A stretch of DNA of 64,000 nt from Belnapia moabensis DSM 16746 (GTDB taxonomy: Bacteria; Pseudomonadota; Alphaproteobacteria; Acetobacterales; Acetobacteraceae), in assembly GCF_000745835.1 (NCBI RefSeq), contig NZ_JQKB01000018.1, positions 1-64,000 on the forward strand. The letters run 5' to 3'. Below, in pieces: positions 5,798-18,355 of this stretch. Both the position numbers and the translations under genes were made by a program. Within the stretch, counting starts at the first letter, position 1; every line of letters begins with the position of its first letter. The notes under the pieces were generated by a model that did not search any database, was not told the origin of the DNA, and saw nothing but the letters and a program-made list of their open reading frames with translations.

Positions 5798-5873
5798 GTC
5801 CCCTTCGTCTAGAGGCCTAGGACACCGCCCTCTCACGGCGGTAACAGGGGTTCGAATCCCCTAGGGGACGCCA
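5798..5873 (+). tRNA. tRNA-Glu (CTC), CCA encoded
   Basis: A full cloverleaf is visible: 7-bp acceptor stem GTCCCCT/AGGGGAC, anticodon stem CCGCC/GGCGG with loop CTCTCAC and anticodon CTC at 5832-5834, and a T-arm AGGGG-TTCGAAT-CCCCT. The discriminator G at 5870 is followed by an encoded CCA. Its 3' 18 bases are the left attachment core of the island, and integration leaves the tRNA intact. Confidence 0.96.
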
Positions 5874-5882
5874 CGCGGCGTT
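5856..5882 (+). repeat. attL, 27-bp direct repeat in the tRNA-Glu 3' end
   Basis: The 27 bases from 5856 to 5882 are repeated perfectly at 18329-18355 in the same orientation. The core starts in the 3' strand of the T-stem, covers the acceptor stem and CCA, and ends 9 bp beyond the tRNA. This is the standard footprint of a tyrosine-recombinase island. Confidence 0.93.
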
Positions 5883-8711: not shown

Positions 8712-10454
8712 ATGCTCCCCATTGATCCAAACTGCTCCCCGGCAGATGTGCTGGTGGATGATGCATGCACGCTTAAGTCTATTAGTAGGCTCCCCTCGGG
8801 GGGGCCGTATAACAATAAGCCCCATATAGAGACTCAAGCAGCCAACTCCGAAGATGATTGGCTTCAAGACATCTTCGGGGAGGCTTCCAGCTCTGTCGAA
8901 GCAGCCTCTGTTCATGAATCCGCTTCACTCCTGGAGGAAGATTACTGCTCCAAGGCTGAAATCTCCCTCCAAGCACCTCCGGCGCGGCACTCTCGTACGA
9001 AGAAGCCGAAGCCGATGCCCGAGAAGGTACCTCCGCTCCGGAGCAACTCGTCTCTCGGACTGATGGGAGGGTTCCGGTTCCCTCCGGAGAAGCTGTCTCG
9101 GAAAGCTGTTGGCGACTCCCGCTACCTCAACTTCCTCCGGGCTCCATCGAATCCGGCAGCCGAAGCCTTAGTCGCGGAAATTCACCGCCGCGTCATCCTC
9201 GCAGAAACCTATGCCGAAGCCCGTACTCGGGCTCGCCGGGCGGATGCTGATCGTCAGCTCCGGGCAGCTCTAGGCGCCATTGTCGGCAGTCTGCTTCTCG
9301 CTTGGACAGAAACACCACCTCGGGCAGTCTCCCGCAGCTTCGATGCAAACACCTTCACGGGTGAGGACATTGGTTATCCCGCATTTGTCGATGCGATCCA
9401 CTGGATGGAGAAGGAGTATTTCCTGCGCCGTAGAAGGGGCGGACGCCTCCCGGACGGTTCTAAGGGTGCTGCCTCACGCTTCTGGCCTACCGAGAAGCTG
9501 CTGACGCTCGCCGCCTCCTACGGCATCGACACGGCCACCGTCGCCGCAGATTTCGGGTGGCGCCGGAGCAGCAGCTTGAAGGCTCCCAAGGTCCGCGAGG
9601 CAATCGTCCTGCAAGAAATCCCGCCGCATCCGAATGCCGAGCGGGGACGGAAGCTTCGGATCGATCCACATGACCTCGTCGCTTCCTCACTCCGGGCGGA
9701 GGTAGAGCGCCTGAATGCCTTTGCGGCCGGCTTTGACGTCACGGGATGTCTCCCGCCGCGCTGGCAGCGGAAGTTCAAGGGCAACCTTCAACTCTACGGA
9801 CGCCTCCATGCGGTGGGTGACGGCAACTACCAAAGCATGCCGCTTGAGCGCCGCCTCAATGACATCCGGATCAACGGTGAGTCCGTCGTCGAAGTCGACA
9901 TCAGCGCCTCTCATCTCTCGATTATGCATGCCTTGGTCGGGCTGCCGCTTCCTGAAGGCGACCCTTACGCGGTGCCGGGGTTCAGCCGAAGCACCGTGAA
10001 GGCGTGGGTTAACGCCACTTTGGGCAAGGGAAGCCCGGTGCGGAAGTGGCCGAAGGATCGGCTTGCAAAGACGCCGGAGCTGGCCGCCGTCGACCCGCTG
10101 GAAGTGATGGCCACTGTTCTCAAACAATATCCTTGGCTTTCGGAGCCGTGGCGCCTCGCAACCGAGTTCTCGGCCGTCGCGGAGCCGAAGCGCGTCCTCC
10201 CGCACATGCTGATGGGGCTTGAGTCCGACATCATGCTCGTCGTGGTGCAAGGGCTCGGCAAGCAAGGCATCCTTGGGCTGCCGATCCACGACGGCATCCT
10301 TGTTCCGGCCAACGCTGCGGCTCTGACCTGCGACTTGATCCGCGCCATTTCACGCCGAGAAATCGGCCTCGAATTCAAGCTAAAGACCTACTCTACCACT
10401 CAAAATCACAGCCAGTCCCATTTCGAAGGAGCATACCCATGTGCGGACGCCTGA
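8712..10454 (+). CDS. Protein with family-A DNA polymerase-like palm motifs
   Basis: About 580 residues from ATG 8712; an in-frame GTG at 8661 would add 17. The first 130 residues are low-complexity and poorly conserved in appearance. Numbered from 8661, the C-terminal third shows four elements in the order of a PolA palm. Motif A-like VEVDISASH has Asp 413. Motif B-like VKAWVNATLG has Lys 447 and Asn 451. LMGLESDIM (517-525) is placed like the PolA QGTAADI helix. Motif C-like LPIHDGILVP has His 543 and Asp 544. In PolA the two palm Asp bind catalytic metals. Thumb, fingers and exonuclease regions are not recognisable. Similar proteins occur in other alphaproteobacterial elements as hypothetical proteins, as far as I recall. 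It may be an element-specific polymerase or primase. Its 3' end overlaps the SRAP gene by 16 bp. Confidence 0.6.
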   Translation: MLPIDPNCSPADVLVDDACTLKSISRLPSGGPYNNKPHIETQAANSEDDWLQDIFGEASSSVEAASVHESASLLEEDYCSKAEISLQAPPARHSRTKKPKPMPEKVPPLRSNSSLGLMGGFRFPPEKLSRKAVGDSRYLNFLRAPSNPAAEALVAEIHRRVILAETYAEARTRARRADADRQLRAALGAIVGSLLLAWTETPPRAVSRSFDANTFTGEDIGYPAFVDAIHWMEKEYFLRRRRGGRLPDGSKGAASRFWPTEKLLTLAASYGIDTATVAADFGWRRSSSLKAPKVREAIVLQEIPPHPNAERGRKLRIDPHDLVASSLRAEVERLNAFAAGFDVTGCLPPRWQRKFKGNLQLYGRLHAVGDGNYQSMPLERRLNDIRINGESVVEVDISASHLSIMHALVGLPLPEGDPYAVPGFSRSTVKAWVNATLGKGSPVRKWPKDRLAKTPELAAVDPLEVMATVLKQYPWLSEPWRLATEFSAVAEPKRVLPHMLMGLESDIMLVVVQGLGKQGILGLPIHDGILVPANAAALTCDLIRAISRREIGLEFKLKTYSTTQNHSQSHFEGAYPCADA

Positions 10455-11197
10455 TTTCAAACCTGCCCGTCTCCACTATCGCCGACCTACTCGATGCTAA
10501 GCCGGCTGAAGGGGTCATTGAACCGCGCTTCAACCTCGCGCCACGCGGCATCGCGCCGATGGTCTGCGTCGACAAGAGGCCGGGCTCGAAGGATAGAGGC
10601 CGTCGCGTGCTCATCCCTGCTACCTTCGCCATCTCGGTGCCCGAGCCAGCATGGAAGGCGATCAAGAAGAGGCGGCCCGCATACGACACCCGCACCGAGG
10701 AGGTGCCGTCCGTCAAATCGTCAGCCCTGAAGAAGGCGCCTTGGGCTGATCTACTCCACCATCGCCGTGGGATAGTGGCCGTGTCCGGGTACTACGATTG
10801 GACCGTGCCTCACCCCAACCTGCCGCATCACAAGCACGTCCACGCCGTCGTGCGACAGGATGGCAGCCCTATGTTGCTCGCCTGCCTTTACGATGATGCG
10901 TGTGAACAGCGGCGCGGTGCAGATGTGCGGTTCTCGGTCGTGACCGTTGAGGCAAAGGGACATGAGGCGGCGCCGAATGGATGGATGCCGGCCATCTTGC
11001 AATCCGACGATATTGTGGCGTGGATTGGAGACGCCGCAGCGGAGCATGACTTAAAGCAACTTTCAGCGTTGCTGCGCCCCGCCGCGGACGGTGTGTTGCG
11101 TCGCTACAGGGTGGCGAATGCGGTCGGGAACGCGGCGAATGATGGGGAATGGCTGCTGCAACCCATCGATAGAGTGACAGCCATCAAGGCAGCCTAA
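10439..11197 (+). CDS. Divergent SRAP (YedK/HMCES-type) protein
   Basis: SRAP proteins shield abasic sites in single-stranded DNA by linking to them through Cys2. This 252-residue product starts MCGR, so Cys2 is present after Met removal. It keeps PRFNLAPR (Asn 32, as in the PRYNIAPT motif) and a VLIPATFAI strand. Other catalytic positions are altered: the usual GFYEW is GYYDW (Asp 120), the NARAE motif reads YDTRTEE, and the expected HDRMP is PNGWMP (180-184), which lacks the His. It is therefore a divergent or specialised SRAP. A GAAGGAGC ribosome site precedes the ATG. The start lies inside the polymerase-like gene, so the two are translated together, suggesting joint action on single-stranded or damaged DNA. 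Confidence 0.8.
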   Translation: MCGRLISNLPVSTIADLLDAKPAEGVIEPRFNLAPRGIAPMVCVDKRPGSKDRGRRVLIPATFAISVPEPAWKAIKKRRPAYDTRTEEVPSVKSSALKKAPWADLLHHRRGIVAVSGYYDWTVPHPNLPHHKHVHAVVRQDGSPMLLACLYDDACEQRRGADVRFSVVTVEAKGHEAAPNGWMPAILQSDDIVAWIGDAAAEHDLKQLSALLRPAADGVLRRYRVANAVGNAANDGEWLLQPIDRVTAIKAA

Positions 11198-11788: not shown

Positions 11789-13138
11789 TTGGCTGGCCTA
11801 ACTGATATGGAGGAGCTCATCACTACGGTCCACGACCGAGATGTGGCGGACTTTTTAAAGGAAGCCTTCATTTGCTACGGTACTGGTGCACACCGCGCCT
11901 GTGTGGTGCTCACTCACATCGCGCTGTTTGATAGTCTGCGTCGAAAGATCAAGGCCATTGCGCCCGTAAACGGCACCGCAAAGGCCGTTTCCGATGAGAT
12001 CGAGGCGCTGGCTGCCGCACAAAGGGTCTTCGAGACGCCACTTATCCAAAAACTAAAAGCGGCCGGCATACTCACGCACCTTGAGGCGCAGATCCTTGAG
12101 CAGCTTAACTCCCAACGGAACAAGGCGGCGCATCCCTCTGGCCACACTGTCACGGCTGAGGAGGCGCGTTTTGTGTTCGCGGAGGCAGTAAAAAAATTCA
12201 TAAGCCAGCCAGTGAGAGAAACCTCGTACATCGTTGAAGCTGTAATTGGGAGGTTCGGCGATCAGAATTTCTTCCCAAGCTCCAATGTTCCCGACATGGT
12301 GGCTGTTCTCGGCCAAGAGCTCGCCAACCTTGATCCGGCAGCCAAGCCATTTTTGATCAGTCGGGTGGTCCAATCTTTGGACAACGCCGATGCTACTATC
12401 GCCGGTAATGCGCGCAATTTCCTGCTTGCGTTCGTTGCGCGCCGGGAAACCGCTGACCGAGACTTAATCATCAAAGGCCTCGTGATCCCCAAGTCATCTG
12501 ATACGAAGCTTGCCGAACTCTTTTCCATGTTGGTAGCAAGCGACCCATTCTTATTCTCCAGCCTGCCGCTAGCAATCAAGCTTCGCATCAGGTCGCTACT
12601 TATGCTGAATGCCACGGCCGTAGGGGTGGGATTGCCCTATCAGCAGCTTAGGCACCCTGCACGTGTTTTAGGGGCGTGCGTTTCAGAGCTTGGCGAAGCT
12701 TTTGTCGTCGCCGAACTTAAGGAGTTCTCCGATTGGGTTGTAGCGCTCGCCCCATACACGCCGGAACTCTTGCAAACGCTCGCGCATGCTCCCGACCTGT
12801 TCAGCCGGCTGTTCGAGAATTACGTCACTCGTGCGGCCTCGTCGCAATGGGCAACTTCAAACCCGTTTGCAGCAGCCGTTCCGGCGCTCGATGTGCCACT
12901 GGCGGCGTTGATTACGGACGAGCAGGCATTTCAGCTTCTTGCCGCGATCAAGAGAGGAGCAGAGTGGAGCGGCCATGGTCCATTGGCGCTCACCAACAGC
13001 GCGTTTGCTACGTTACCGGCCTTGAAGGCTAAAGCGCAGTCCTTCGCCGCTGTCGACCCTGCAAGAGCCACCGCCGTTCTTGCCGCGCAAAAGGTCGTTA
13101 CCGATCTTGCGGAATTTCTTAGCGAGCACCTTGCCTAA
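11789..13138 (+). CDS. HEPN-domain protein of unknown function
   Basis: A 449-residue protein from TTG 11789, chosen because AAGGAG (11778-11783) sits 5 bp upstream; an ATG at 11807 is the alternative. The N-terminal 140 residues form an all-helical HEPN-like domain: RACVVLTHIALFDSLRRKI (36-54), then a helix leading to RNKAAH (110-115). This is the R-x4-H motif that forms the RNase active site of HEPN toxins and defence proteins. Residues 150-449 are mostly helical with no recognised fold and could be a sensor or effector region. No nucleotidyltransferase partner (MNT antitoxin) is adjacent. It may be a solitary defence or RNA-processing protein of the island; that role is inference. Confidence 0.65.
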   Translation: MAGLTDMEELITTVHDRDVADFLKEAFICYGTGAHRACVVLTHIALFDSLRRKIKAIAPVNGTAKAVSDEIEALAAAQRVFETPLIQKLKAAGILTHLEAQILEQLNSQRNKAAHPSGHTVTAEEARFVFAEAVKKFISQPVRETSYIVEAVIGRFGDQNFFPSSNVPDMVAVLGQELANLDPAAKPFLISRVVQSLDNADATIAGNARNFLLAFVARRETADRDLIIKGLVIPKSSDTKLAELFSMLVASDPFLFSSLPLAIKLRIRSLLMLNATAVGVGLPYQQLRHPARVLGACVSELGEAFVVAELKEFSDWVVALAPYTPELLQTLAHAPDLFSRLFENYVTRAASSQWATSNPFAAAVPALDVPLAALITDEQAFQLLAAIKRGAEWSGHGPLALTNSAFATLPALKAKAQSFAAVDPARATAVLAAQKVVTDLAEFLSEHLA

Positions 13139-14997: not shown

Positions 14998-16284
14998 TTA
15001 GTTCGTCCTGCGTCCAGATAACCACTGGCCAAGGGGAGTAAAAAGCCACGTCGAAGGCGCGTCCGTTTGCGGTACTCGCTCGACGGCAACCGCTTCGAGC
15101 CGGGGACATCCGTGAACCGCGATCAAGCTGCGGCCGACAAGGAAAACTCCGTCCGCGCTACCGATAGCAAACGCGCGGACAGGAGCAGGCTCGTCCTCAA
15201 CGGCACTTGCGATGTAGCGCCGCAGCGTCGTCGGCCTGAACCCCTTTAGCTTCTGCCTTTCGGCTTTCCGAGGAAGTCGAAACGCAGGAAAGGGAGCCAT
15301 GAATTTCAAACGGCCTCGGGTACCCACCGTTCGGCCGTACAACTTAGCGGGACCTTGGCGCAGTTCCACCTTGATCCCCAAGCCTGCAACGAGGTCTAGT
15401 ACCCCCTCTATCAACTGCTGGCTCGTAACCGAAAACTCGATCTGACCGCGAGAGTTACACGTACCGTCGGTGTCCAAGAGTCCTTGAAGCAAGGCTATCC
15501 GCTGAGCGATTGAGCTTCGAAGGTAGATAGCGGGGACATGCTTGTTTTTCAGGACCCCAAGCTCTCGCAAGGCCGTTGTCATCCCATCCCATCGGCATAT
15601 GAGGAAGGGCCGCCTGTACGCAGGTCGAGGGTCGACAACCTTCGAGGCAGGCTCCGGCAGGTATGGGAAGAGCAGCTCAAAATCAGACTGTGCCATCCCG
15701 ATTTTGCCGGCGGCGCTGTAACCATCCCCAAGCCAAGCCCCAAAGTGGTAGGGCTCAATCGGCAGCGTAGCTTCGGGCAGCTCGACGCCTACGGAGACAG
15801 GAACGGAATGGTTCAACTCACGCCCGTCGCTGTGCAGCAGGGATGCCATGATCGCTGCTGGCAGCCGAGGAGACGGCAAGATGGGGTCAAGATAGGCGTG
15901 TTGGCGTTGCCGATTCAGCTCGGTCACTTTCAGGGAAACACCGGGCTTCTTCGACACGGCTTTCGCCCGACTAGGACGCGCTGCACGGCGACGTGCCCGA
16001 TACTCATCAGACCGTTTAGCTGAAAGCTTCCGCTCCTCGGCGGTCATCGTTGGGATCGGCTGGTCGAACGCGGTACGAACTTCCTCTCCGGTATCCAGCC
16101 GGTAGCGAGCAAGCTTCGCTTCCGAGAAGTCGGCGATGGCGACAACGGGAACCACCCGGCCTGCGGCACCGAATACTTCATGACCTACGCGGACATCAGC
16201 AACGCGAATTATGCCAGACGGAGACGTTGAGAGGGGGCAGGGCAGAATCTGATCGAGTGTAAGCCCTCCAGTAATCCCCTGCAT
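14998..16284 (-). CDS. Free-standing intein with LAGLIDADG endonuclease core
   Basis: A 428-residue product with a strong AAGGAGG site 4 bp before ATG 16284. Nearly the whole protein is an intein. Block A is CPLSTSPSG...VRVGHEVF, with Cys1 at residue 16. Two LAGLIDADG-like motifs follow, FGAWLGDGYS (181-190) and LLQGLLDTDG (265-274). Block F is AIGSADGVFLVGR (373-385), and block G ends LIAVHG (387-392) before Cys 393 at the +1 position. The flanks are only 15 residues and 36 residues and match no host protein I know. Splicing residues are degenerate: block B reads TAFDQ (His replaced by Gln 75), and the terminal Asn is Gly 392. It may act as a homing endonuclease or as an N-terminal self-cleaving protein rather than a splicing intein. 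Confidence 0.8.
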   Translation of the reverse strand: MQGITGGLTLDQILPCPLSTSPSGIIRVADVRVGHEVFGAAGRVVPVVAIADFSEAKLARYRLDTGEEVRTAFDQPIPTMTAEERKLSAKRSDEYRARRRAARPSRAKAVSKKPGVSLKVTELNRQRQHAYLDPILPSPRLPAAIMASLLHSDGRELNHSVPVSVGVELPEATLPIEPYHFGAWLGDGYSAAGKIGMAQSDFELLFPYLPEPASKVVDPRPAYRRPFLICRWDGMTTALRELGVLKNKHVPAIYLRSSIAQRIALLQGLLDTDGTCNSRGQIEFSVTSQQLIEGVLDLVAGLGIKVELRQGPAKLYGRTVGTRGRLKFMAPFPAFRLPRKAERQKLKGFRPTTLRRYIASAVEDEPAPVRAFAIGSADGVFLVGRSLIAVHGCPRLEAVAVERVPQTDAPSTWLFTPLGQWLSGRRTN

Positions 16285-16665: not shown

Positions 16666-18228
16666 CTACGCCGGCGATGCCTTGACGCGTGCCGCGTCGG
16701 CGCTCCCCTCAATGCCGAAGGTGACGAGGTCGATCTTCGCCTTCAGCGTGCGCATGCTGTAGCTGCCGTAGGTTCTTCCAACGGATTTCGCCGTGTGGCC
16801 GGTCAGGCGGTCATGAAATTCCTCCGCAACCCCGCCGTCGCGGCACCCGTCCTTGAAGGTATGGCGAAACTCATGAAACACCTTCCCCGATCCGGGTAGC
16901 GCCCCGTCTATTCGCCGCGCCATGCGCTTGCTCATAGCATCGGCATCGACGCTGAATAGGCGCTCTGTCGGCCGACTTTCCATCCAATCGAGGAAGCCGT
17001 CCGTGATGAGCTGGCGGTGGATCGGAACCTTGCGTACCGAGCCTTGAGTCTTAACCGTCCTCCCGACCTCCGCATCCGCATGGATGTCGAAACATGGGAT
17101 GCCATCGACCACTACGATGTCGCGCTTGACGAGCTGGCAGATTTCGTCGAGCCGCGCTCCTGTGTATAGAGCGATGCGAGCCATCCACCATTCGTCACCG
17201 CATAGGACCTGGAACAAGGCACCAAGCTGCTCGGCGGTGAACGCTCCGCGCTTCCTCGCATCCTTTGGGAAGCTGGCCTTGATCCGGACGAAAGGGTTCG
17301 CTTCGAGGAGCCCATCGTTGACCGCGACGTTGAGCAGGGTACGAAGCATACTCCATTTCTTCTGCTTCGTCGCTCCCGCAAGGTTGGGGGCGCTTACAAG
17401 AAATTCCTTAAAACGTCGAGCATGTTCCATGGTAATCTCGGCATATCGAAGCGGGCCATTGATCGCCTCGAACTGCGCGATCGCTTTGGTCATCTCGCTA
17501 TGTGCTGATGGCCCCGATGTCCCTTGAGCCTTCCAACGGGCGGCAAGCGCCGTCAGTGAGGTTGTGTCGATCGGGTTCTCGCTCCCCTTTTCGCCGTCGT
17601 CGGAGGGGCCCGCGATCAATGCCCGTTGGGCTTCCAGTGTCCGTCGTTCGGCCTCGGCGAGCTCACGCGCACGGTCCATCAAGGCTGGAACCCAACGATC
17701 GGGGATAGTTCCGAAATCCGGTCCGCCATCCTCATCGACACCTTTGACAAGCGAGGCTCGCGCAGCCTCGTCCTCAAGGGCCGATAGGTCGTGGTCAATG
17801 TGGCGGATAGCTTCTGTCCGGGTTGCTGGACGGGGCCGCGCAAACCCGGTTGCGATGTTACGGGCGACCGCCTCGGCTTCAGCGGGCGTCGCCCAAGTGG
17901 GTGCAAACGGCAAGCCGCCCGTCTCCATGCCCATCGTAACCGTAGCCTGAGCCCGCAATGCAGCGTCGAAATCTTCAGAAGCAAGGAAGGCTTCCTCGCG
18001 CTTCACCGTATCCCTCGCTTGCCGGGCGGCCGAGAACTGCTGCTCTAGATCAGCCAGCACAGCATGCGAGGCGGCCTCGGCTTCTCGCTTCAAGCCGGTC
18101 TTGAGGCTGATCCAGATTTCCTTTCTGCCTTCGAAGGCAGATTGCACGTCCGGCGGAACAGGCCGCCTCACATAGTAGGTCGTCTTTCGGAGGTGGAGGA
18201 ACTTCGGGAGAGGCGCCATGCTGCTCAC
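16666..18228 (-). CDS. Tyrosine recombinase (island integrase)
   Basis: Catalyses site-specific integration and excision at the tRNA-Glu att sites. The 520-residue product from GTG 18228 (ATG 18219 is the alternative) has an N-terminal DUF6538-like segment (LRKTTYYVRRPVPPDVQ, 13-29), a core-binding region and a C-terminal catalytic domain. The catalytic set is visible: Arg 359 in YTGARLDE, Lys in VKTQGSVRKVP (393 or 400), His 452/Arg 455 in HEFRH, His 478 in LTGHT, and a Tyr at 487 or 490 in TYGSYS. Its 5' end faces attR 100 bp away, with arm-like repeats in between. All key residues are present, so the island may still be mobile. Confidence 0.95.
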   Translation of the reverse strand: MSSMAPLPKFLHLRKTTYYVRRPVPPDVQSAFEGRKEIWISLKTGLKREAEAASHAVLADLEQQFSAARQARDTVKREEAFLASEDFDAALRAQATVTMGMETGGLPFAPTWATPAEAEAVARNIATGFARPRPATRTEAIRHIDHDLSALEDEAARASLVKGVDEDGGPDFGTIPDRWVPALMDRARELAEAERRTLEAQRALIAGPSDDGEKGSENPIDTTSLTALAARWKAQGTSGPSAHSEMTKAIAQFEAINGPLRYAEITMEHARRFKEFLVSAPNLAGATKQKKWSMLRTLLNVAVNDGLLEANPFVRIKASFPKDARKRGAFTAEQLGALFQVLCGDEWWMARIALYTGARLDEICQLVKRDIVVVDGIPCFDIHADAEVGRTVKTQGSVRKVPIHRQLITDGFLDWMESRPTERLFSVDADAMSKRMARRIDGALPGSGKVFHEFRHTFKDGCRDGGVAEEFHDRLTGHTAKSVGRTYGSYSMRTLKAKIDLVTFGIEGSADAARVKASPA

Positions 18229-18328: not shown

Positions 18329-18355
18329 ATCCCCTAGGGGACGCCACGCGGCGTT
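18329..18355 (+). repeat. attR, 27-bp direct repeat
   Basis: Perfect copy of 5856-5882, including the last 18 bases of the tRNA gene with CCA but without the rest of the tRNA. It marks the right end of the island; chromosomal sequence resumes after it. Confidence 0.93.

What the first reader, a model, noticed from the sequence alone, without database searches (positions are those of the whole stretch)
8712..10454. Cryptic family-A polymerase-like palm in a short island protein
Seen: Asp in VEVDISASH, Lys...Asn in VKAWVNATLG, ESDIM, and HDG in LPIHDGILVP, in the order and rough spacing of PolA motifs A, B, the QGTAADI helix and C. Inference: an element-encoded polymerase, primase or terminal transferase lacking recognisable exonuclease and thumb. 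I know of no described function for this family.
Basis: partly seen in the sequence, partly recalled or inferred. Interest (0 to 1): 0.78.

Follow-up and report, generated by a model that had tools for sequence, protein, structure and literature searches.

The report
Mini DNA polymerase carried by tRNA islands
A short protein on a mobile island of a bacterium really does contain the catalytic core of a DNA polymerase I-type enzyme; relatives have been described in phages, and others recur on small bacterial islands beside an integrase and a tRNA gene, where they may copy the island's DNA.

Summary
The ORF 8712-10454 (580 aa) has a family-A polymerase palm: AlphaFold is confident, Foldseek's 30 PDB matches with E<=0.001 are all family-A DNA polymerases, profile comparison with PolA gives P=1e-5 against 0.19-0.57 for four controls, and four key residues are present in 76 of 76 aligned rows.

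The family is not unknown: it is PHROG 4756, whose phage members were described in 2024 as "divPolA2" (PMC11348598).

What appears new is the bacterial branch (24 of 289 genomes of the class match the PHROG, 4 of them weakly). Copies sit on small islands with a tyrosine integrase, and in part a tRNA gene and a serine resolvase. The window's island is 12.5 kb with 27-bp repeats at tRNA-Glu. PolA's ribose-gate glutamate is absent in 75 of 76 rows; the N-terminus looks like a winged helix (weak scores).

Best reading, about 0.5: the priming/replicating enzyme of a pipolin-like integrative element, with a family-A polymerase. No activity was tested; no iteron array and no empty site were found.

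The parts
5798..5873 (+). tRNA-Glu (CTC), integration target of the island
   Evidence: ARAGORN; Rfam tRNA 58.6 bits at 5798-5870
5856..5882 (+). att repeat, left copy, overlapping the tRNA 3' end
   Evidence: 27-nt perfect direct repeat, spacing 12,473 bp
8712..10454 (+). divPolA2-type mini family-A polymerase (580 aa from ATG; 597 aa if GTG 8661 is the start)
9240..9518 (+). N-terminal winged-helix-like domain, residues about 177-269
   Evidence: H-S-H-H-S-S-H order in both models; best but weak matches are MarR/PadR/TubR-type winged helices (best Foldseek E 0.082)
9747..10412 (+). palm and short fingers, residues 346-567
9798..9803 (+). GR motif (G363-R364), counterpart of the TGR motif of PolA
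   Evidence: R364 in 76 of 76; aligned with TGR
9888..9914 (+). motif A, VEVDISASH, catalytic D396; H401 at the ribose-gate position
   Evidence: D396 76 of 76; gate Glu in 1 of 76
9987..10001 (+). motif B, R426-x3-K430
   Evidence: both invariant in 55 of 55; K430 76 of 76
10221..10235 (+). ESDIM, counterpart of the AADI helix of PolA
   Evidence: aligned by hhalign; D or E at 504 in 55 of 55
10278..10307 (+). motif C, LPIHDGILVP, catalytic D527
   Evidence: D527 76 of 76
10439..11197 (+). SRAP (HMCES/YedK-type) gene overlapping the polymerase stop; probably cargo or a local partner
   Evidence: Pfam SRAP 9.1e-27; not in any multi-locus cluster shown
16666..18228 (-). DUF6538 tyrosine integrase of the island
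   Evidence: Pfam DUF6538 1.7e-16, Phage_int_SAM_5 6.4e-8, Phage_integrase 3.7e-4 (this last below its cut-off)
18329..18355 (+). att repeat, right copy

Best explanation
The protein is a bacterial, island-borne member of the divPolA2 family: an N-terminal winged-helix-like domain followed by a stripped-down family-A palm with short fingers and no exonuclease. It belongs to a small integrative element whose recurrent genes are a tyrosine integrase (often of the DUF6538 kind), this polymerase and, in a part of the copies but not in the window's, a serine resolvase; other genes, some of them defence genes, vary. Proposed mechanism: the integrase excises the element from a tRNA 3' end as a circle; the winged-helix part holds the polymerase on the element's DNA; the palm, which lacks the PolA glutamate that excludes ribonucleotides, starts and/or extends strands on the circle so that it multiplies before re-integration; the resolvase, where present, breaks up multimers. 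Shown: fold, conservation, island borders, gene association. Inferred: DNA binding, priming, replication of the circle, dimer resolution.
For: Fold and motifs. Family: PHROG 4756 and the divPolA2 representative. Mobile-element association: of 29 polymerase loci taken lie within 10 kb of an integrase or DUF6538 hit, against 1.5 expected from the density of Phage_integrase hits (the hit list was cut, so 15 is a minimum; the expectation leaves out DUF6538-only genes). Integrase in the flanks of 23 of 68 contig loci, resolvase of 20, both of 9; in the 30 bacterial-genome loci 17, 13 and 8, the integrase within 1 kb in 14 of the 30. tRNA gene found in 11 of 33 loci scanned (33 of 68, chosen mostly because they carry recombinase genes), within about 360 bp of the integrase in 10 of the 11. 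A repeat of the tRNA end was found in 4 of 12 tried: the window, L081, L084, L092; 7.0-12.5 kb. Among 107 neighbour ORFs (of 133 listed) of 16 loci chosen mostly for their recombinases, only integrase (12), resolvase (10), DUF6538 (7) and the resolvase HTH (4) recur in more than two; the choice of loci favours recombinases, but nothing else recurs. Integrase, polymerase, Vsr/HNH/DNA methyltransferase and a recombinase stand in that order on an independently annotated Sphingomonas plasmid, and a second, 37%-identical copy in the window's own genome has resolvase and DUF6538 integrase on the same 9 kb. Selection: Ka/Ks about 0.16 in the palm.
Against: No iteron array beside the gene in the window or in nine other stretches examined, only scattered two-copy repeats. 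The window's island has no recognised resolvase, and its integrase lies at the end away from the tRNA. No clean empty site: in 6 of the 7 other genomes of the genus the left flank with the tRNA matches (in the seventh only the tRNA stretch does), but the right flank is on another contig or hundreds of kb away in all 7. 12 of 29 loci have no integrase hit on their contig in the lists seen, and 2 more have it beyond 10 kb; 45 of 68 contig loci show no integrase in the flank held, many flanks being cut by contig ends. Some relatives sit in phages that bring their own replication genes. One neighbour ORF matched replication initiator A and one ParA. The winged-helix assignment has no significant score. 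No small circular form was met; the only two plasmid records with a match are 138 kb and 1.6 Mb. The type member AUR84708 keeps the gate Glu.
Confidence: 0.5

Rival explanations
1. It is a single-subunit RNA polymerase or primase: it makes RNA (transcripts of the element, or primers for the host polymerase), not element DNA.
For: Gate Glu absent in 75 of 76 rows; third residue of motif C is Ser in 55 of 76, as in 14 of 14 T7-type RNA polymerases checked, while 12 of 12 PolA have HDE. Yutin et al. 2024 also raise an RNA polymerase role for divPolA2.
Against: Profile comparison with T7-type RNA polymerases is not significant (P 0.08); Foldseek prefers DNA polymerases, first RNA polymerase at rank 46, E 0.014; the motif-B Tyr position is N or G in 62 of 76 rows.
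Confidence: 0.2
2. It is a repair or gap-filling polymerase, useful when the element enters as single strands or is damaged; in the window it works with the overlapping SRAP protein.
For: SRAP gene overlaps its stop codon in the window; repair is one role suggested for divPolA2.
Against: SRAP is in none of the recurrent neighbour clusters or families shown; the recurrent partners are recombinases.
Confidence: 0.14
3. It is a defence enzyme carried as cargo, for example an untemplated polymerase like the Abi reverse transcriptases.
For: Other genes near it include restriction, Abi and TIR-effector genes.
Against: No PADLOC match for the four members tested. It recurs next to integrases while the defence genes vary; phage-borne members are common.
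Confidence: 0.1
4. The palm is catalytically dead and the protein is a DNA-binding regulator of excision.
For: The gene abuts the integrase gene in several loci; winged-helix-like N-terminus; one weak member, L019, has lost motif residues.
Against: Both catalytic Asp, the motif-B Lys and the GR Arg in 76 of 76 is not the pattern of a dead enzyme.
Confidence: 0.06

Closest known systems
divPolA2 of Caudoviricetes (Yutin et al. 2024, PMC11348598; sections 13 and 14 and search passages read)
   Same: Same family by profile (AUR84708: 129 bits; both match PHROG 4756): active-looking palm, no exonuclease, no homologous thumb, N-terminal domain of another kind.
   Different: Described from phages with a regular DNA polymerase; AUR84708 has Glu at the gate position and FDE at motif C, whereas the other 75 rows lack both Glu. 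It is the only published divPolA2 examined here. Integrase/tRNA islands of bacteria are not mentioned in the sections read.
DNA polymerase I (PolA, Pfam PF00476)
   Same: Palm fold, GR...Q..P, motif A, motif-B R/K, AADI-like helix and motif C.
   Different: No Pfam match; no exonuclease, no recognisable thumb; gate Glu lost and motif-B aromatic residues mostly lost; Glu of HDE replaced, mostly by Ser, Gly or Ala.
Pipolins (piPolB elements; PMC7385651, search passages read)
   Same: Integrative element with its own polymerase, tyrosine recombinase, att repeats at a tRNA gene, variable other genes.
   Different: Polymerase is family A-like, not family B; a serine resolvase recurs; priming and replication not shown.
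T7-type single-subunit RNA polymerase
   Same: Distant palm homologue (recalled); HDS at motif C.
   Different: No significant profile match; shorter (580 against 883 aa).

Membership tests
divPolA2 / PHROG 4756 | Sequence homology to the published representative AUR84708 | tested here: met
   hmmsearch with the profile of A6 (55 rows, window first) finds AUR84708 with 129.4 bits, i-E 1.3e-40 (14 sequences searched); PHROG 4756 matches the window (1.3e-16) and AUR84708 (2.3e-91)
divPolA2 / PHROG 4756 | Palm with catalytic residues, no exonuclease, no thumb | tested here: met
divPolA2 / PHROG 4756 | Encoded by a tailed phage beside a regular DNA polymerase | tested here: not met
   window copy lies on a 12.5-kb tRNA island with integrase; of six island ORFs scanned with Pfam none is a virion gene, but one, 15001-16284, matches terminase PHROGs, probably through an intein-like part. 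Phage relatives exist
DNA polymerase family A (Pfam DNA_pol_A) | Match above the family's cut-off | tested here: not met
   no DNA_pol_A match for the window protein or six relatives at E<=10
DNA polymerase family A (Pfam DNA_pol_A) | Palm fold and motif A/B/C catalytic residues | tested here: met
DNA polymerase family A (Pfam DNA_pol_A) | Gate glutamate in motif A and HDE in motif C | tested here: not met
   each Glu in 1 of 76 rows, the same row; 12 of 12 PolA controls have both
Single-subunit RNA polymerase | Profile similarity to T7-type enzymes | tested here: not met
   P 0.081, against 0.19-0.57 for four controls; one clade of 14 sequences was the template, so a remote link is not excluded
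Single-subunit RNA polymerase | Template-directed RNA synthesis | not testable with these tools
   needs purified protein
Pipolin | Tyrosine recombinase and att repeats at a tRNA gene | tested here: met
Pipolin | Family-B, primer-independent polymerase (piPolB) | tested here: not met
   polymerase is family A-like
Winged-helix proteins | Winged-helix fold of the N-terminal domain | tested here: inconclusive
   topology and kind of best hits agree, but no significant score: hmmsearch E 0.044, Foldseek E 0.082 at best

The most novel reading that the evidence does not exclude
The family-A counterpart of pipolins: a widespread class of tRNA-targeting, self-copying integrative elements of Alphaproteobacteria whose single winged-helix-palm protein recognises the origin, starts strands without a primer and extends them, with a serine resolvase to keep the circle monomeric.
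Probability: 0.3. Interest if true: 0.82.

Novelty: new variant of a known kind. Interest (0 to 1): 0.62.

Why it matters
The self-copying integrative elements named in the pipolin paper (polintons, casposons, pipolins; passages read) rely on family-B polymerases. A recurrent integrase-polymerase-resolvase set built on a family-A palm that lacks the ribose gate would be a second, independent solution, and would make the question left open by Yutin et al. (DNA repair enzyme or RNA polymerase?) directly testable on 7-12 kb elements with few genes. It would also add a very small family-A enzyme, useful for asking what a palm can do without a thumb.

Tried and rejected
Rejected: MDMPI_N as the only Pfam hit (E 0.1, below its cut-off). 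Rejected: SRAP as a conserved partner. Rejected as support: iterons (no array), an RNA feature (only the tRNA), an empty site in the genus. Exact peptide search with the window protein alone confirmed no relative; alignment A1 was too divergent to search with. The first family alignment translated minus-strand loci on the wrong strand; it was redone and is not used. PDB searches by sequence gave nothing (E<=10) or nothing significant (best 0.044). Upstream DNA of the window and the B. mucosa copy aligns only in patches.

Rows dropped: A6 holds 54 of the 68 loci plus the window; left out were near-duplicates, judged by length and ends (L065, L071, L074, L100, L110, L116), and short, open-ended or weak ones (L079, L097, L098, L104, L107, L108, L109, L115). 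Of 23 oriented class loci, four were not entered as class rows: L005 (cut by a stop), L019 (lacks the GR motif and the motif-B Lys), L031 (the window itself), L032 (entered under its own name). One search leaves out fragments and the weakest loci (for instance G008, G058, G163, G215, G241, G304, G065 and the C9 fragment) but includes G142, whose protein is L019. The neighbour scan used 107 of the 133 ORFs.

Papers: PMC11348598 sections 13 and 14 and search passages; PMC12926913 outline, section 15 and search passages; PMC7385651 and PMC13228545 search passages; all others as listings only. "divPolA2" occurs in 2 papers of the library, "DUF6538" in none; the listings show no title on family-A polymerases in integrative elements. 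Subscription papers are mostly not held.

Full report
WHAT WAS CHECKED. The finding lies in an ORF of 580 aa from ATG 8712 (597 aa from GTG 8661) to the stop at 10454. The quoted strings are all there. A loose spacing pattern is met by 56 of 20,000 shuffles, so more evidence was needed. Pfam gave only one hit below its cut-off, NCBIfam and a PDB sequence search nothing; PHROGs gave family 4756, of unknown function, at 1.3e-16.

THE FAMILY. PHROG 4756 is matched at E<=0.001 in 24 of 289 genomes of the class, 4 of them weaker than 1e-6, and in 25 of 398 of the phylum, 23 of these 25 in the same class (how many of the 398 belong to that class is not shown). Close relatives of the window protein are fewer: 12 of 385 in a class sample. 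The genus is Belnapia by inference: the same-genus genome G292 has its match at the same contig coordinates as the Belnapia mucosa locus L080, 72% identical. Searches of public contigs gave 68 loci (28, 30 and 10): phage contigs, Alphaproteobacteria, and three assemblies labelled Desulfobacteraceae, Desulfobacula and Lentisphaeria. In a 55-row alignment R364, R381, D396, R426, K430 and D527 are invariant; in a 76-row alignment D396, D527, K430 and R364 are present in all 76. One weak class member (L019), left out of both, lacks the GR motif and the motif-B Lys. In a quick tree the window protein falls in a 14-row group (SH-aLRT 100) of alphaproteobacterial copies; several branches of the tree are long or weak.

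THE FOLD. AlphaFold on the 55-row alignment gave mean pLDDT 81.9, pTM 0.77, the stretches below 50 lying in the first 117 residues and the last 13. Foldseek against the PDB: 30 matches with E<=0.001, all family-A DNA polymerases, Taq first at 5.8e-6 with probability 1.00; TM-scores are low (0.20-0.30); the first RNA polymerase is rank 46 at E 0.014. Foldseek against viral models: the eleven best are proteins of 400-450 aa, E 3.5e-19 to 1.1e-14, one of them named DNA polymerase of a Rheinheimera barbavirus. hhalign against 12 PolA: probability 82%, P 9.9e-6 over 213 columns, with GR, motif A, the ESDIM helix and motif C in register (motif B is not); T7-type RNA polymerases 0.081; controls: reversed PolA 0.36, reversed RNA polymerase 0.50, integrase 0.57, resolvase 0.19.

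THE ACTIVE SITE. In PolA the ribose gate is Glu710 in E. coli numbering (stated in PMC13228545, passages read); that it stands five after the motif-A Asp is recalled and agrees with the DYSQ-x-E-x-R of the 12 PolA controls, which all have HDE too. Here the position is His in 45 of 76, Gln 7, Tyr 6, Phe 6, other residues 11, and Glu in one, the phage protein AUR84708. The third residue of motif C is Ser in 55, Gly 10, Ala 8, Cys 2 and Glu in AUR84708 only. The position of the motif-B Tyr is Asn in 50 and Gly in 12 of 76. Relaxed sugar selection is a reasonable inference, not a result. Only one published divPolA2 was compared at these positions.

THE N-TERMINUS. Folded alone (residues 131-345, 52 rows) it reaches pLDDT 88.7 and shows helix-strand-helix-helix-strand-strand-helix, the order of a winged helix. 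The best Foldseek matches are MarR-type (MexR, ZitR), TubR and PadR-type proteins, but none below E 0.08, and the family profile's best PDB hits are MarR/PadR regulators at E 0.044 and worse. I call it winged-helix-like.

KNOWN OR NOT. Yutin et al. 2024 (PMC11348598, sections 13 and 14 read) describe divPolA2: palm, no thumb, no exonuclease, an N-terminal domain without known relatives, in barbaviruses and other phages; they leave open DNA repair or RNA synthesis. Their representative AUR84708 was fetched and is found by this family's profile with 129.4 bits and by PHROG 4756 at 2.3e-91. By tblastn it has relatives in 266 of 50,697 phage records, among them Vibrio phage ICP1. So the window protein is a member of that family. 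The bacterial polymerase survey PMC12926913 (section 15 read) names PolA1, PolA2, PolA3 and PolA1-like in its A-family section. Searches for divPolA2 and DUF6538 gave 2 and 0 papers.

THE ISLAND. A perfect 27-nt direct repeat at 5856-5882 (the tRNA-Glu 3' end) and 18329-18355 bounds 12.5 kb of lower G+C. Inside are the polymerase, an SRAP gene that overlaps its stop, an ORF with weak resemblance to the defence protein PD-T7-3 (3.5e-5), a LAGLIDADG ORF whose PHROG matches are mainly terminases, and a DUF6538 integrase at the far end. The flanks joined in a script found no uninterrupted site in the 7 other genomes of the genus; the left flank with the tRNA matches in 6, only the tRNA stretch in the seventh, and the right flank is on another contig or hundreds of kb away. 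One of them, G291, carries the same tRNA flank, a relative of the polymerase and a DUF6538 gene on one contig.

THE RECURRENT SET. In 25 genomes bearing the family, integrases were located (the list was cut). Of 29 polymerase loci 11 lie within 5 kb and 15 within 10 kb of an integrase or DUF6538 hit, against 0.75 and 1.5 expected from Phage_integrase density. In the 68 contig loci an integrase is in the flank of 23, a resolvase-like gene of 20, both of 9; in the 30 bacterial-genome loci the counts are 17, 13 and 8 (flanks are cut by contig ends in many, and a few resolvase hits are long or doubtful, such as that of L080). Integrase and polymerase genes abut in some (L083, L085, L090, L102: 0-23 bp between mechanically called ORFs). 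A tRNA gene was found in 11 of 33 loci scanned, the 33 chosen mostly for their recombinases; in 10 of the 11 it lies within about 360 bp of the integrase: Thr, Tyr, Glu, Phe, Leu, Arg, Glu, Thr, Thr, Met. A repeat of the tRNA end was found in 4 of 12 tried, the window included: elements of 7.0, 7.5, 8.5 and 12.5 kb. The 7.0-kb one, in Gluconobacter japonicus, holds resolvase, an HNH protein, the polymerase, a TIR effector and the integrase. A Sphingomonas plasmid record, annotated by others, shows integrase, HTH protein, this protein as hypothetical, another hypothetical protein, Vsr, HNH, DNA methyltransferase and, after three further genes, a recombinase. The window's genome has a second copy with integrase and resolvase on the same 9 kb, and a degenerate fragment elsewhere. 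Pfam on 107 neighbour ORFs from 16 loci chosen mostly for their recombinases: integrase 12, resolvase 10, DUF6538 7, resolvase HTH 4, every other family at most 2.

HOW IT MOST LIKELY WORKS. Shown: conserved palm, island borders, association. Inferred: the integrase frees a circle; the polymerase, bound through its N-terminus, starts or extends strands on it; a resolvase, where present, separates multimers. Pipolins are proposed to work in a like way with a family-B enzyme (PMC7385651, passages read). Against it stand the lack of an iteron array, of a recognised resolvase in the window, of an empty site, of any small circular form, and the presence of the family in phages with their own polymerase. 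I give it 0.5, RNA polymerase or primase 0.2, repair 0.14, defence 0.1, dead regulator 0.06.

VERDICT. Observation confirmed; interpretation right on the fold, too strong on novelty. New here, as far as the searches go: the bacterial island branch, its recurrent partners, and the loss of the gate glutamate. New variant of a known kind, interest 0.62.

Noticed in passing
window 15001-16284 (-): Stand-alone LAGLIDADG ORF (Pfam LAGLIDADG_3, 2.1e-7) that matches phage terminase profiles (PHROG 36964, 2e-19), probably through an intein-like part.
   Followed up: no
window 10439-11197 (+): SRAP-family gene whose start overlaps the polymerase stop; not among the recurrent neighbours of the relatives.
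   Followed up: partly
window 11789-13138 (+): 449-aa ORF with weak resemblance to the defence protein PD-T7-3 (3.5e-5) and to DUF4145 (0.024).
   Followed up: no
L012 / L028 (genome G105, contig C14, about 8.3 and 17.3 kb): Two polymerase copies with equal scores 8.9 kb apart, which could be a tandem array of one element.
   Followed up: no
L062, 1170-2477 and 5899-6915: Two polymerase-family genes on one phage contig, beside a DUF6538-type integrase and a terminase-cluster gene.
   Followed up: no
Vibrio phage ICP1 records, e.g. NC_015157 54067-54777 and MW794167 57667-58956: Records of the cholera phage ICP1 carry relatives of AUR84708, annotated as hypothetical proteins.
   Followed up: no
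L033 (genome G000, contig C9, 85816-86208): Degenerate fragment similar to the first 132 residues of the window protein, with five stops.
   Followed up: no
L084, 7310-8152 (-): CAP12/Pycsar TIR effector gene in the 7-kb Gluconobacter element, between polymerase and integrase.
   Followed up: partly
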